A stretch of DNA of 5,335 bases from B21-G16 sp003644825 [NCBI: Candidatus Zhuqueibacterota bacterium] (GTDB taxonomy: Bacteria > SM23-31 > B21-G16). The DNA lies in contig QNDJ01000150.1 of NCBI GenBank assembly GCA_003644825.1, positions 1-5,335 of the forward strand. Direction: 5' to 3'. Positions 146 to 4,201 of the stretch are shown piece by piece. The notes beneath the pieces are model-generated. The model saw only the letters and a list, made by a program, of their open reading frames with translations. It ran no database searches and was not told where the DNA came from. Position 1 is the first letter of the stretch. The number at the start of each line of letters is the position of its first letter. The position numbers were made by a program, and so were the translations under genes.

Positions 146-2071
146 TCATTTTTTAATTTTAATAATAATTTTATCTTTTTTAGTGTTCAGAATCTGATTG
201 GAAAAATTCTCAAGGAGTTTATATTCTTCTACTTCGAATTTATCCTGCTTCAGAATCAACTTTTCCTGATAGGATAATCCTGCAGATGTTCTGTTTATAA
301 CCCTGAAAAACTCACCAAAGTATTGCCGATTTACTGTGCTTTTAGGGATAGAAACTATCTCTGTATTTGCCGGTATTTTAATATTTATTAGCACCATTTC
401 TGTTTTTTTGAAATCTAAAAAGAATGGATATGTTCTCTTTTTGTCAGAAAAATAATTGTGAAAGTTATAAACAAAAACAGCAGGATTAATTTCAACATTA
501 TTTTCATCATTTAACAAACTTTTTTTTGTTTCAAAGGAATAATTAATTTCCATAGATTTTGAAAGGTCCTCTGGAGAAGTAATATCAAAATCTGTAATAG
601 AGGCTTCAGGAATAACTGTTTGTAATAATTTTTCATAGTAATTTTTTCTTTCATCAATATTTGTTTTAGATATGAGTTTTCTAAATTTTAGTTCATTTTG
701 AGCATAAAACACACTTTTTACCTTTCCTTTAACAAAACCGTCATCGGTAACTGTAATTTCGGCGGAATGATTGATGAGATTTTGTCTCATTCCTGTTAAA
801 GGTGTTTTTAAAAATTTTCCATTTTTATATCCTATTGGAAGTGCGAACACATCCTGACAGTTATAAGGTAGAAATGGGTATCGTGAGAACTTTTCTGATG
901 GGTCAAGCCAGAGCCCATCTTTAATATCCGGGATGAAGGTTATAACACGATTGAACTGATCAGGGCTGGGAAACTGAGGATATATTAGCCCATAGTCTCT
1001 TGTGGAAATAAGACAGGGGTAAGCCTTTATACCTGCTTCTTTTAGCATAGAAACAAAAAGTAAATTTATCTCCTGATTATCTCCAAGCTTTGTTTCAAGA
1101 ATATCATTAACATATAATGGCGATGGTCTGATGCCGATTACAGGTAGTAGTTTTATGTTTGATTCAATATAAGAAAAAATTGCTCTGACCTTTTCTTCTT
1201 TATCTTTTATACCTCTGGTTATTTCTTTAGCAGTTTTTTTTACTTTATCATTTTTTTTCAATTGATAATTGTAGAGTTTTTTCATATTATCGCTTACGTT
1301 TTTCCATTTTTCATTAATAGCGTAGTCATAAGGGTCAAATTTGTAATATGTAAGAGTCAGAAGACAACCAAATGATAATTCTCTTTTTGGTGGCATATTT
1401 ATTTCTGCTTCAAGAGGTTCAATATTATTAAATTTCCATTTATATCTTTCTGCGTCTACAGTAAGGTCTTTAAGGGCGGCTTTAAGTTCCCATTTTGCTT
1501 TTTCAGCGGTAAAATCTCTGGAGCCCTGATTCAGAGGAAAAAAAGCATATTCAAAACCCATTTTCAGGTCAAAAATCAATTCCGCTTCATTAACATATAG
1601 TTCATCCTGAAAATAAAAAGGGTCTATAAAATATAATGATTCTGATATTCTTTCCACAGTATACTCCAGAATACACCCGGGTTCTACTCCAGGGAAATGG
1701 ATAATATTTTCCTTAATATAGTTTCTTTTAAAATATTGAGGAAATATCATTTTTTCTTCGATATTTTCAGGTGAAAGTGGTATAATAGTTCCATCTGGTT
1801 TTATCACTTTTCCTTCAATATTTCTGATAGTAGTGCCCTTTTTATAAGGAACCTTAATATTAGCATATTTTTTAACACCCTCAGATGTAAGAACATTTAT
1901 ACTTTTTGTATCTTTTGTTTTTATGAAAAATACCGCTGTTTCTGTATGAATGGTTATTTTTCTTTCTTTTTTTAGAATGGTAGCACCCTCTGAAGATATT
2001 TGCATAGAAAATAATTTATTTTGAATCGTTAATGGAATTAACAGAATAAACAAAAATCTTAAATATTTCAT
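146..2071 (-). CDS. Exported DUF3857 / transglutaminase-like protein with degenerate catalytic triad
   Basis: Secreted protein of the DUF3857 plus transglutaminase-core architecture, common in envelopes of diderm bacteria; substrate unknown. An upstream ATG at 2086 gives 646 residues, but I prefer the ATG at 2071 (Met6), because GGAG lies 9 nt before it and nothing like an SD precedes 2086. That start gives a classical signal peptide (MKY, then LRFLFILLIPLTI) without a lipobox Cys. In 646-residue numbering, about 35-240 is the DUF3857-like beta region, 280-400 the transglutaminase core, and 435-646 a beta-rich C-terminal region, perhaps DUF3858-like. The core keeps the family frame (GIRPSPLYVNDIL, LGDNQEINLLFVSMLKEAGIKAYP, FNRVITF, LWLDP). 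However, the usual GDC(K/R)D is GDNQE and the usual FNH is FNR, so Cys and His of the triad are Asn337 and Arg380; only Asp395 remains. It is probably a non-catalytic binding or structural protein. The stop is TGA. It follows the DHOD-like gene closely and is probably co-transcribed with it. Confidence 0.85.
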   Translation of the reverse strand: MKYLRFLFILLIPLTIQNKLFSMQISSEGATILKKERKITIHTETAVFFIKTKDTKSINVLTSEGVKKYANIKVPYKKGTTIRNIEGKVIKPDGTIIPLSPENIEEKMIFPQYFKRNYIKENIIHFPGVEPGCILEYTVERISESLYFIDPFYFQDELYVNEAELIFDLKMGFEYAFFPLNQGSRDFTAEKAKWELKAALKDLTVDAERYKWKFNNIEPLEAEINMPPKRELSFGCLLTLTYYKFDPYDYAINEKWKNVSDNMKKLYNYQLKKNDKVKKTAKEITRGIKDKEEKVRAIFSYIESNIKLLPVIGIRPSPLYVNDILETKLGDNQEINLLFVSMLKEAGIKAYPCLISTRDYGLIYPQFPSPDQFNRVITFIPDIKDGLWLDPSEKFSRYPFLPYNCQDVFALPIGYKNGKFLKTPLTGMRQNLINHSAEITVTDDGFVKGKVKSVFYAQNELKFRKLISKTNIDERKNYYEKLLQTVIPEASITDFDITSPEDLSKSMEINYSFETKKSLLNDENNVEINPAVFVYNFHNYFSDKKRTYPFFLDFKKTEMVLINIKIPANTEIVSIPKSTVNRQYFGEFFRVINRTSAGLSYQEKLILKQDKFEVEEYKLLENFSNQILNTKKDKIIIKIKK

Positions 2072-2080
2072 TTTATTTAT

Positions 2081-2084
2081 CTCC
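2081..2084 (-). promoter_or_regulatory. Ribosome binding site that selects the Met6 start of the DUF3857 gene
   Basis: GGAG on the minus strand sits 9 nt upstream of the ATG at 2071-2069. The alternative ATG at 2086-2084 overlaps this motif and has only a CTCTTAAA-type sequence before it. The shorter start also puts the signal peptide directly at the N-terminus. Confidence 0.6.
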
Positions 2085-2095
2085 ATTTTAAGAGT

Positions 2096-3256
2096 TTAAA
2101 TCTGATATAAGTATATAGCTTTTTTCGGGCACATTTCTACACATAATCCACATCCAGAACAGACGTTTTCAATTATGTAATATGCCTCATTATCAGTTTT
2201 ACTGATAGCATTAAAATTACATATCTTTTCGCATATACCACAACTATTGCACAGGTTAGAATCAATATCAGCTTTAACTTTCTGCGTTCTATCAACCTGG
2301 TGCAGCGAAAGAATTTTATTACAGATTTTACTTTTAAAATCCTTAATTGAACTGTATCCTTTTTCATCCATAAACTTTTCAATTTCATCAATAAGTTTTC
2401 TTATAATACCAAACCCGGAAAGATATAATAAAGTGCATATCTGTGTGGAATCTGCTCCTGCCATAATTAGCTTTATGATATCCTGTCCATTATGTATACC
2501 CCCTGAACCACTGACCGGTATTTTAATATATGGAGAAAATTCACTTATCCATCTCAGGGCATAAAGCAGTGAGTATGAACCTCCGTAACCTGCATACCCC
2601 CCGTGCATTACAGGTTTTTCATTTAGTATGTCGATATCAAGGCCAGCAAACCTGCTAAAAGATGTTATTCCATCTGCGCCATTTTCTTCAATTATTTTTG
2701 CTGTTAAAAGTGGGCTGTTTAACTGGGGAGTCATCTTACAAACAATATCAATTTTCACTGAATTTTTTACTATTTTAAGAACATCTTTTATATACTCATT
2801 CATCTTATTCCGATAATCTCGAATATGGTCACTATAAGGGCAGGATAGATTAAGTTCTATTGCATCTGCACCGGCTTCTTCCAGCAATTTTGAATATTCT
2901 TCCCAGCCTTTTTCAGTAATGCAGGCAATACTCCCGATAACAGGAAAATCAACGGATTTTTTGGCTTTAGATATTTCTTCTGCATATTCCCAAGGACCAA
3001 ATTTGCTTGCCTGTTCATAGCTGTAAAAGGAATATGATGTTAATTTTCCTGAGCCTCTCTGGATGATTTTATATTTTGGAGCGGGGTCTTTTCTACATTT
3101 TTCATCCTCAAAAAGGGTTTTCATAACAGATGAACCAGCACCTGAATCCTCAATTTTTTTAAGCTTTTCTGCAGTTTCTGTTAATCCACAGGAAGCAATA
3201 ACTACAGGATTTTTTATTTCAACATTTGCAGAGTATCGGGATTTTAAATTTTTCAT
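2096..3256 (-). CDS. Dihydroorotate dehydrogenase-like FMN protein with C-terminal 2x[4Fe-4S] ferredoxin domain
   Basis: A 386-residue cytoplasmic oxidoreductase that joins a DHOD/PreA-type FMN TIM barrel (about 1-315) to a bacterial ferredoxin domain (about 328-384). The barrel shows NPVVIAS near the N-terminus, ELNLSCP at 134-140 with the DHOD/DPD-type Asn136 and Cys139, KMTP at 174-177 (flavin-contacting Lys), and the FMN phosphate loop SGSGGIHNGQDI at 249-260 followed by AGAD. The AGAGSSVMKTLFEDE-like N-terminal stretch and ADGITSFSRFAGLDID at 194-209 recall the 'DHOD-like' subgroup rather than true PyrD. The tail has two CxxCxxCxxxC clusters: C336/C339/C342/C346 and C366/C369/C372/C376. 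The first ends in Cys-Asn instead of Cys-Pro. The family predicts electron transfer between ferredoxin-level donors and FMN; the substrate is unknown. It could be called PreA-like, but no PreT-type partner and no pyrimidine genes are here. The start codon has no SD. The stop is TAA. Confidence 0.88.
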   Translation of the reverse strand: MKNLKSRYSANVEIKNPVVIASCGLTETAEKLKKIEDSGAGSSVMKTLFEDEKCRKDPAPKYKIIQRGSGKLTSYSFYSYEQASKFGPWEYAEEISKAKKSVDFPVIGSIACITEKGWEEYSKLLEEAGADAIELNLSCPYSDHIRDYRNKMNEYIKDVLKIVKNSVKIDIVCKMTPQLNSPLLTAKIIEENGADGITSFSRFAGLDIDILNEKPVMHGGYAGYGGSYSLLYALRWISEFSPYIKIPVSGSGGIHNGQDIIKLIMAGADSTQICTLLYLSGFGIIRKLIDEIEKFMDEKGYSSIKDFKSKICNKILSLHQVDRTQKVKADIDSNLCNSCGICEKICNFNAISKTDNEAYYIIENVCSGCGLCVEMCPKKAIYLYQI

Positions 3257-3258
3257 TA

Positions 3259-3297
3259 TTAAAGATTTATCGAAACTTATCTATTATTTAAAGATTT
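3259..3297. repeat. 10-bp direct repeat before the DHOD-like gene
   Basis: TTAAAGATTT on the + strand occurs at 3259-3268 and again at 3288-3297, 29 bp apart from start to start. One copy lies 3 bp from the DHOD-like start codon, the other at the end of the in-frame extension of the upstream gene. It could be a binding-site pair or a chance result in AT-rich DNA. Confidence 0.3.
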
Positions 3298-3309
3298 CAA
3301 TCTGGTCAA
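3281..3309 (-). promoter_or_regulatory. Possible promoter for the DHOD-like gene
   Basis: On the minus strand TTGACC (3309-3304) is followed after 17 nt by TAATAG (3286-3281). The -35 matches well; the -10 matches only moderately (3 of 6 to TATAAT). Transcription would begin about 3275, leaving a leader of roughly 18 nt without a Shine-Dalgarno sequence. The same bases can be read as codons of the in-frame extension of the upstream gene, so this remains weak. Confidence 0.22.
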
Positions 3310-3361
3310 CTTTTATTTTACTCATTTTTGTGAGTTTATTTTTTTCGTGGGATTCATCATG
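3284..3361 (-). other. Open in-frame extension after the TAG stop of the nitroreductase gene, ending in TAA-TAG
   Basis: Past the TAG at 3364-3362 the nitroreductase frame stays open for 25 more codons, starting HDESHEKNKLTK, and closes with TAA (3286-3284) directly followed by TAG (3283-3281). The second half can also be read as a 13-residue ORF, MSKIKVDQIEIFK, from the ATG at 3325. If the extension is or was coding, the gap to the DHOD-like gene falls from about 105 bp to about 24 bp. I see no SD for the 13-residue ORF. It is most likely untranslated remnant sequence or occasional read-through. Confidence 0.3.
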
Positions 3362-4201
3362 CTATTTATTCCATTTCATTTCTTCCCAGTTCCAGCTTAC
3401 TGGATTTCCGCATCCACATTTGCATTTCGGTGGGTTTTTGAGAATTTTTAGAATACCATTTTTCCCGAATTTTGAGTGCCCCGGAATAAAAATTCTGCTT
3501 CTTACAAGGCTAACAATAGGCTGACCACAACCACAGGCACATCTTTTTATCTTCTGGTTATTTTCATCCAGAGCCGGTATCTTATACGAGATTTCGTTTC
3601 TCTTTTTTTCCTTTTTATGGTTTTTCTCTTTTACATATCTGTTTATAAATATCCTGTTGTTATACCTTATTTTTTTTGTTGTTTTCCTGATTTTTGTTTC
3701 TTCAGGTATTCCAACAGGTAAAATTGCCAGTGGAACAAAATTATCAGGAACTTCAAGAATCTCATTCAGAAAAGACGGGTCTCCTGGAGTGTAAGTAATT
3801 GTTCCGAGGTTTTGCTCAACAATTGCAAGGGTTATATAAGAGATTGAAATCCAGGTTGATTCAAGCCAGTATGGTGCTCTTTTATCTCCAAAAACGCATA
3901 ATAAAACAGGTGCATCGGTCAAGAATCTCTTTTCAGAAGTTATGTTCTGTTTTTTCAACCAGGCACGTATACTTTGAGGTGCATTTCTATGCCAGATTTC
4001 ATCTACCTTTTCACACTCGGTTCTGATTAATTTTTTAATTTTCTGGTCTTTTACAATTATATATAACCAGGGTTGTCTGTTAGCTCCAGAGGGTGCAAGC
4101 CTTCCTATTCTCAATATATCGTAGATTTTCTCATCGGGTATTTTTTTTCTCTTGTAGTTTCTTACACTTTTTCTCTCTTTAATTAAATTAATAAGGCTCA
4201 T
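3362..4201 (-). CDS. Nitroreductase-family flavoprotein with C-terminal cysteine-rich CxCGCG extension
   Basis: A 279-residue protein. Residues 1 to about 188 form an FMN-dependent nitroreductase-fold domain: ERKSVRNY at 9-16 (FMN phosphate-binding RxSxR), LAPSGANRQPW at 35-45, a GTITYTPG segment at 133-140 and LPVGIPEE at 161-168, closing with an IRYNN motif like the usual HYNRW. The family reduces nitro compounds, quinones or enamide-type bonds with NAD(P)H or reduced ferredoxin; the substrate is unknown here. The domain alone matches the usual length of about 170-200 residues. A lysine-rich linker (about 190-220) and two Cys cassettes follow: CACGCGQP at 221-228 with GH at 241-242, and CKCGCGNP at 260-267, where the frame meets TAG twelve codons later, before any matching GH. 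These look like small metal-binding units. The linker has no internal ATG. The start is supported by AAAGG 8 nt upstream and lies 13 bp after lipA, implying one transcript. Confidence 0.85.
   Translation of the reverse strand: MSLINLIKERKSVRNYKRKKIPDEKIYDILRIGRLAPSGANRQPWLYIIVKDQKIKKLIRTECEKVDEIWHRNAPQSIRAWLKKQNITSEKRFLTDAPVLLCVFGDKRAPYWLESTWISISYITLAIVEQNLGTITYTPGDPSFLNEILEVPDNFVPLAILPVGIPEETKIRKTTKKIRYNNRIFINRYVKEKNHKKEKKRNEISYKIPALDENNQKIKRCACGCGQPIVSLVRSRIFIPGHSKFGKNGILKILKNPPKCKCGCGNPVSWNWEEMKWNK
3365..3541 (-). repeat. Two CxCGCG cassettes encoded in tandem, the second incomplete
   Basis: Residues 221-259 and 260-279 of the nitroreductase-fusion protein share the pattern C-x-C-G-C-G-(Q/N)-P-(V/I). 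The first continues through FIPGHSKFGKN to a Gly-His pair; the second stops at WNWEEMKWNK. Cys spacing and the following His suggest Zn or another metal as ligand, but that is inference. The unit resembles CxCGCG...GH segments I recall from phage-like or HNH-associated proteins; I cannot confirm this without a search. Confidence 0.5.

What the first reader, a model, noticed from the sequence alone, without database searches (positions are those of the whole stretch)
3362..4201. Nitroreductase fused to CxCGCG cysteine cassettes
A normal nitroreductase domain ends near residue 188, then a Lys-rich linker leads to two CxCGCG units. I do not know this architecture among nitroreductases. The tail could be a metal- or nucleic-acid-binding module that redirects a flavoenzyme, or the relic of a separate gene joined by loss of a stop codon. 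There is no internal ATG in the linker, so the tail cannot start from an ATG independently.
Basis: partly seen in the sequence, partly recalled or inferred. Interest (0 to 1): 0.6.

Follow-up and report, generated by a model that had tools for sequence, protein, structure and literature searches.

The report
Flavin enzyme with phage-nuclease zinc-finger tail
A bacterial flavin enzyme related to the enzymes that strip iodine from tyrosine carries a conserved tail of two cysteine-histidine modules of a kind otherwise seen here in viral DNA-cutting proteins, which suggests, but does not show, that the enzyme is steered to nucleic acid.

Summary
In detail: 3362-4201 (minus) is one 279-aa frame with a nitroreductase-fold enzyme, a linker and two CxCGCG units. 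It is not a chimera or a lost stop: the full-length fusion recurs in 2 other genomes of the class (46% identity; 3 of 6 held genomes of the phylum), and the tail (56-72% identical) is better conserved than the enzyme (48-59%).

Two corrections. (1) The enzyme is nearest to iodotyrosine deiodinase (IYD), but the lid residues Glu-Tyr-Lys of 26 of the 27 nearest tail-less relatives are Asp-His-Lys in 3 of 3 fusions. (2) The unit is CxCxC-x(n)-[YF]xx[GS]H, homologous (hhalign 98.8%) to modules of viral proteins, 8 of 13 of which match HNH or homing-endonuclease families. No Pfam family describes it. A TAG stop removes the last His of the window's second unit.

Best reading: an IYD-like flavoenzyme with a changed substrate pocket, tethered, probably to nucleic acid, by zinc knuckles captured from a homing-endonuclease-type protein. 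Metal and nucleic-acid binding are inferred, not shown.

The parts
3362..4201 (-). whole fusion gene, 279 aa, ATG to TAG
   Evidence: recurs full length in G004 and G005
3686..4201 (-). IYD-like nitroreductase-fold FMN enzyme domain, aa 1-172 (Pfam Nitroreductase aa 7-164)
   Evidence: Pfam E 2.5e-21; best PDB sequence match 6pz0 IYD, E 6e-40; the top 12 structural matches of the G004 homologue's model are IYD, Z 20.3-22.3
3929..4003 (-). lid triad positions: Asp67 (4001-4003), His71 (3989-3991), Lys91 (3929-3931)
   Evidence: D-H-K in 3 of 3 fusions; E-Y-K in 26 of the 27 nearest tail-less relatives; D-H-K in 0 of all 51 tail-less matches
3551..3685 (-). variable basic linker, aa 173-217
   Evidence: 21-25% identity; K+R 15 of 45
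3476..3541 (-). CCCH unit 1, Cys221 Cys223 Cys225 ... Phe-Ile-Pro-Gly-His242
3365..3424 (-). unit 2, Cys260 Cys262 Cys264, cut off before Tyr-x-x-Ser-His
   Evidence: both homologues continue with YIDSHIG
3362..3364 (-). TAG stop inside the conserved unit 2; TAG is an ordinary stop in this genome
   Evidence: 30 of 173 open frames of 150 aa or more on 20 contigs end in TAG
3287..3361 (-). 25 open codons after the stop; possible but unsupported remnant of the old C-terminus
   Evidence: alignment to the G004 C-terminus is not better than controls (43 of 210 as high)

Best explanation
The gene makes an FMN enzyme of the iodotyrosine-deiodinase-like part of the nitroreductase superfamily, with a changed substrate triad (Asp-His-Lys for Glu-Tyr-Lys), joined by a variable linker to two small CxCxC...H modules. 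The modules were probably captured as a tandem from a homing-endonuclease-type protein without its nuclease domain. Most likely each complete module folds around one zinc ion, and the tail holds the enzyme on nucleic acid (DNA more likely than RNA), so that flavin-based reduction happens next to it or on something bound to it. Shown: the fusion, its recurrence, its conservation, the triad change and the homology of the tail to viral nuclease-type modules. Inferred: direction of capture, zinc, nucleic-acid binding, substrate and reaction. In the window's organism the second module has lost its His to a stop codon, so only the first is complete there.
For: Fusion recurs over the full length in G004 and G005 (E 1.5e-83 and 2.8e-82). 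Tail identity W/G004 34 of 61, W/G005 36 of 61, G004/G005 44 of 61, against 83, 82 and 101 of 172 for the enzyme; 15, 14 and 20 of the identical tail residues use different synonymous codons. Tail profile against viral module profile: hhalign probability 98.8, E 4.3e-17; tandem against viral L016: BLASTP E 1e-13 (G004) and 1e-10 (window). Of 13 distinct viral carriers found by tblastn, 8 match a PHROG HNH, endonuclease or homing-endonuclease family at E <= 1e-4: L018, L020, L022, L081, L084, L087, and L016 and L017 only when the part after the modules was scanned alone. Homing endonucleases are described as carrying loosely tethered DNA-binding modules, zinc fingers among them (PMC3943268, passages read). 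Tail K+R minus D+E: +10 window, +14 G004, +8 G005. Triad change in 3 of 3 fusions and 0 of 51 tail-less matches.
Against: No direct evidence of metal or nucleic-acid binding. The tail model (pLDDT 89.4) has no significant match to a solved structure (best Z 2.4), and ligand geometry could not be measured. 5 of 13 viral carriers show no PHROG nuclease match at E <= 1e-4, and whole-protein scans of L016 and L017 showed none either. The window copy has lost the last His of unit 2, so the full tandem is not strictly needed there. Gene neighbours give no link to DNA.
Confidence: 0.5

Rival explanations
1. The tail is a metal-binding module for protein-protein contact or metal sensing, not for nucleic acid. 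It is related to nuclease modules but now serves dimer assembly, regulation or partner binding of the flavoenzyme.
For: Conserved tail with all Cys and His kept in the two complete homologues; neighbours with a known family are metabolic, transport or envelope genes, beside DUF2400 of unknown function.
Against: 8 of 13 viral carriers of the module are nuclease-type by family match; the tail is net basic in all three fusions.
Confidence: 0.3
2. The tail is a passive leftover of a mobile nuclease gene that ran into the 3' end of the enzyme gene and is now decaying.
For: The window copy ends inside unit 2; the module family is mobile-element-like.
Against: The tail is better conserved than the enzyme across two families of the class, with synonymous codon changes; no nuclease family matches the fusions; fusion in 3 of the 4 genomes of the phylum that hold any relative of the gene.
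Confidence: 0.12
3. The CxCxC...H modules hold an iron-sulphur cluster and pass electrons to the FMN.
For: Cys-rich tail on a flavoenzyme; the window gene is followed by a flavin/iron-sulphur oxidoreductase. Two weak matches of viral modules to redox families: L018 to phrog_20137 'ribonucleotide reductase', E 0.0054, and L084 to NiFe_hyd_SSU_C, E 0.043, below cut-off.
Against: No iron-sulphur family matches the tail or its units at E <= 1; apart from such weak matches, no redox domain was listed for the viral carriers.
Confidence: 0.06
4. Assembly chimera or frameshift joining two genes.
For: The window is a short contig of a draft genome, 5335 bp, 493 contigs.
Against: Same join in two other genomes that lie in different public records.
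Confidence: 0.02

Closest known systems
Iodotyrosine deiodinase (IYD), e.g. PDB 6pz0, 5ko7, 3gfd
   Same: Nearest family by sequence (6e-40) and by fold of the G004 homologue (top 12 rows); motifs RxSxR, PSGxN and YTP shared with the tail-less relative L009 (their role in FMN binding is recalled)
   Different: Lid triad Asp-His-Lys instead of Glu-Tyr-Lys; the IYD matches end before the linker and CCCH tandem
Homing-endonuclease-type viral proteins (PHROG 3339, 559, 119, 314, 8446) with CxCxC...GH modules
   Same: Tandem module, spacing between units (L016) and P-x-CKCGC signature
   Different: No nuclease domain in the fusion; a flavoenzyme takes its place
NUMOD nuclease-associated DNA-binding modules
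   Same: Small modules tethered to a catalytic domain; a NUMOD3 motif lies in the same proteins as the CCCH modules in L017 and L021
   Different: No Pfam NUMOD model matches the tail; no Pfam family was found for the CCCH unit
Plant nitroreductase D7KP50 (Arabidopsis lyrata) with an N-terminal C2H2 zinc finger, and A0A2P5WXT2 with a Myb/SANT-like domain (PMC7538488, passages read)
   Same: Nitroreductase domain joined to a nucleic-acid-binding type of domain
   Different: Single plant proteins, N-terminal domain of other families; no C-terminal CxCxC...H tandem mentioned in the passages seen

Membership tests
Nitroreductase superfamily (PF00881) | Nitroreductase-fold domain above the curated cut-off | tested here: met
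   77 bits against 23.5
Iodotyrosine deiodinase | Closest solved structures are IYD | tested here: met
Iodotyrosine deiodinase | Glu-Tyr-Lys lid triad that clamps the amino-acid end of iodotyrosine (its role is recalled; the pattern was read from alignments) | tested here: not met
   Asp67-His71-Lys91; D-H-K in 3 of 3 fusions, E-Y-K in 26 of the 27 nearest tail-less relatives
Iodotyrosine deiodinase | Reductive deiodination of iodotyrosine | not testable with these tools
   no assay
Homing endonuclease | Nuclease catalytic domain (HNH, GIY-YIG, LAGLIDADG, PD-(D/E)XK) | tested here: not met
   No nuclease family for the window protein in Pfam, PHROGs or NCBIfam at the limits used; G004 and G005: Pfam and PHROGs
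CxCxC...GH module of viral nuclease-type proteins | Sequence homology over the tandem | tested here: met
   hhalign 98.8%, E 4.3e-17
CxCxC...GH module of viral nuclease-type proteins | Metal binding by Cys3-His | not testable with these tools
   no coordinates or assay
Eukaryotic CCCH zinc finger (spacing C-x8-C-x5-C-x3-H, recalled) | Ligand spacing | tested here: not met
   spacing is C-x-C-x-C-x16-H in unit 1 and C-x-C-x-C-x19-H in unit 2 of G004 and G005, read

The most novel reading that the evidence does not exclude
A nucleic-acid-guided flavin reductase: an IYD-like enzyme with a redesigned pocket, brought to DNA or RNA by captured homing-endonuclease modules, where it reduces a modified, halogenated or nitrated base or a nucleic-acid-bound substrate. 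It would be a flavin-dependent repair or modification activity that I do not know for this superfamily (recalled, not searched).
Probability: 0.12. Interest if true: 0.85.

Novelty: new variant of a known kind. Interest (0 to 1): 0.5.

Why it matters
The gene joins an IYD-type flavoenzyme to modules of selfish nucleases, a combination that the searches here found only in this candidate phylum. If the tail binds nucleic acid, a reductive flavin chemistry would be aimed at DNA or RNA, and it would show how a host can reuse the targeting parts of homing endonucleases. It also gives a clean substrate-triad change (Glu-Tyr-Lys to Asp-His-Lys) that marks an IYD-like clade to assay.

Tried and rejected
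Alternative code (TAG read as an amino acid): rejected as a genome-wide code. TAG ends 30 of 173 open frames of 150 aa or more on 20 contigs. Read-through at this single site is not excluded.

Post-stop remnant: the 25 codons after the stop hold DESH and QIEIF, which look like DSH and QFDLF of the G004 protein. The alignment score is not unusual: 43 of 210 control post-stop stretches score as high, codon shuffles 2580 of 5000, base shuffles 1529 of 5000. The pattern Q[LIFVM][DSE][LIMV]F is in 0 of 210 controls, but I chose it after seeing it, and G005 lacks it. Left as an observation.

Tail elsewhere: the tail profile matched 37 of 386 genomes at E <= 0.1: the 3 fusions at E <= 4.5e-40, the other 34 at E 0.0018-0.1. 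I read translations at 7 of those weak loci and none had the module; the rest were not read. The single-module profile gave 6 matches of 34.9 bits or more, all in the three fusions; the next is 21.9 bits; the weak ones were not inspected. One genome-contig scan (84,980 species by the tool's description) found 2 loci, G004 and G005 under their record names; its peptide patterns were strict, so diverged fusions may be missed. tblastn against phage and plasmid records: no match. In viral contigs the window's tail alone found nothing; alignments were needed. A viral scan with the whole-fusion alignment gave 5 loci, all matching from residue 191 on (linker and tail), but it could only start from tail patterns.

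All 54 matches of the whole-fusion profile in 386 genomes (E <= 1e-15) were checked in the end: 3 fusions, and 51 others none of which holds the CCCH pattern or CxCGC. The 24 that were added last have neither E-Y-K nor D-H-K and look like other nitroreductase subgroups. Three of the 26 E-Y-K rows (L134, L135, L137) are near-copies.

Fold of the tail: no significant PDB or viral-library match; inconclusive for so small a domain. The best viral-library rows are weak (E >= 0.096); several are named endonucleases.

Tree: the fusions are one side of a branch at 71/66 support, with long-branch warnings that include the window row; one origin is not ruled out, not shown.

Papers: listings (0 papers). 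No listing shows this architecture in bacteria; the nearest is the plant case in PMC7538488 (passages read). PMC5499721: one section and passages; PMC3943268, PMC3930498 and PMC6017928: passages; two papers on IYD and the superfamily are not held; all others listings only.

Full report
What is there. The window is a whole 5335-bp contig of a draft genome (2.48 Mb, 493 contigs, 83.6% complete). On the minus strand lie four genes with gaps of 13, 105 and 9 bases: lipoyl synthase (5126-4215), the gene in question (4201-3362), a dihydroorotate-dehydrogenase-like protein with two 4Fe-4S motifs (3256-2096) and a DUF3857/transglutaminase protein (2086-146). The gene in question encodes 279 aa: Pfam Nitroreductase at aa 7-164, a basic linker, then CACGCG at 221-226 and CKCGCG at 260-265.

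The fusion is real and conserved. Of 6 held genomes of the phylum, 4 have a relative of the protein at E <= 0.001; 3 of these (window, G004, G005) have it full length with the tail, at 46% identity between the window and each of the others. G002 has tail-less relatives only; G001 and G003 (70% and 79% complete) have none. G004 and G005 belong to another family of the same class. Between pairs, the enzyme part is 48-59% identical, the linker 21-25% and the tail 56-72%, and 14-20 of the identical tail residues use different synonymous codons. That is the pattern of a tail kept by selection behind a free linker. An assembly join or a lost stop would not give it. In G004 and G005 the gene is followed by a DUF2400 gene and lptD, with mgtE further upstream, not next to lipA, so the fusion has kept together through a change of neighbourhood.

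The enzyme. The closest solved sequences are iodotyrosine deiodinases (6pz0, E 6e-40; profile 3.8e-46). The model of the G004 homologue has pLDDT under 50 outside residues 24-182 and 138 residues at 70 or more; its top 12 structural matches are all IYD entries (Z 20.3-22.3). The whole-fusion profile gave 54 matches at E <= 1e-15 in 386 genomes: the 3 fusions and 51 others. At the lid positions the fusions have Asp, His, Lys in 3 of 3. Of the 27 others aligned first (the best ones that came as loci), 26 have Glu, Tyr, Lys and one distant row Arg, Leu, Lys; three of the 26 are near-copies. The other 24 matches have neither pattern and belong, as far as can be seen, to other nitroreductase subgroups. 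None of the 51 has the CCCH pattern. That Glu-Tyr-Lys holds the amino-acid end of iodotyrosine is recalled; a review read here says only that side chains of the lid bind the substrate (PMC5499721, section read). So the tail goes together with a changed substrate site, and this clade should not be called a deiodinase.

The tail. Homologues show the unit as C-x-C-x-C-x(n)-[YF]-x-x-[GS]-H, twice. Viral contigs gave 9 and 14 loci, which are 13 distinct proteins after removing repeats (L080/L081, L084/L086, L087/L088, and the seven contig positions found in both calls). Twelve of the 13 hold C-x-C-x-C-x(9-20)-[YFW]-x-x-[GS]-H; L019 reads YIRNH, also with the His. The rows of alignment A5 were picked with that pattern (except the window's unit 2), so its Cys and His columns are invariant by construction. 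Eight of the 13 match a PHROG endonuclease, HNH or homing-endonuclease family at E <= 1e-4, for example L084 with phrog_3339, 3.2e-101, and L020 with phrog_8446, 1.3e-33; for L016 and L017 this appeared only when the part after the modules was scanned alone. L085 is weak (0.0069). L019, L021, L023 and L024 have no such match; L021 has a NUMOD3 motif. Profile comparison of the fusion tail with the viral modules gives probability 98.8, E 4.3e-17, and viral L016 aligns over the whole tandem with two gap positions. No Pfam family covers the unit. Outside the three fusions, the single-module profile finds nothing above 21.9 bits in 386 genomes, so no free-standing donor was seen in these bacteria.

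The window's own copy. Its second unit stops at ...WNK-TAG, where both homologues continue YIDSHIG. TAG is an ordinary stop in this genome (30 of 173). Unit 1 keeps all four ligands; unit 2 keeps three Cys. Either the second His is not needed here or this copy has begun to lose the tail. The codons after the stop look a little like the old C-terminus, but the test did not support it.

How it most likely works. The modules resemble the tethered binding elements that homing endonucleases use to hold DNA (general statement in PMC3943268, passages read). With the nuclease replaced by a flavoenzyme, the simplest reading is a flavin reductase held on nucleic acid by one or two zinc knuckles. The enzyme's fold, the triad change, the fusion and the module's homology are shown by calls; zinc, nucleic-acid binding and the substrate are inferred. 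The main rival is a metal module for protein contact. I put the tethering reading at 0.5.

Novelty. The parts are known kinds. The combination was found only in the two relatives by a strict-pattern scan of 84,980 species and only in the three fusions among 386 genomes by profile. The literature listings show no bacterial case; a plant study mentions one nitroreductase with an N-terminal C2H2 zinc finger and one with a Myb/SANT-like domain (PMC7538488, passages), so joining this superfamily to nucleic-acid-binding domains is not wholly without example. I file it as a new variant of a known kind, interest 0.5.

Noticed in passing
window 3287-3361 (minus, after the stop) and L007 1420-1434 (minus): The G004 protein ends near QFDLF, like the bacterial sliding-clamp binding motif (recalled); QIEIF lies in frame after the window's stop. 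Chosen after the fact; G005 lacks it.
   Followed up: partly
window 2096-3256 (minus): Dihydroorotate-dehydrogenase-like protein with two 4Fe-4S motifs, near PRK07565 and PreA but below their curated cut-offs; directly downstream of the fusion gene.
   Followed up: no
window 146-2086 (minus): DUF3857 plus transglutaminase-core protein, signal-peptide-like start by eye; no NCBIfam match.
   Followed up: no
L014 and L015: Shared gene order mgtE ... fusion - DUF2400 - lptD in G004 and G005, with Ppx/GppA and an ATP-cone protein in between only in G005.
   Followed up: partly
L085 2306-3199: Viral protein with several CCCH modules around an HNH-like core (weak HNH match, 0.0069).
   Followed up: partly
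L021 3287-5797: 837-aa viral protein with two CCCH modules, a C2H2-like finger (below cut-off) and a C-terminal part that looks like a DNA methyltransferase by eye only.
   Followed up: no
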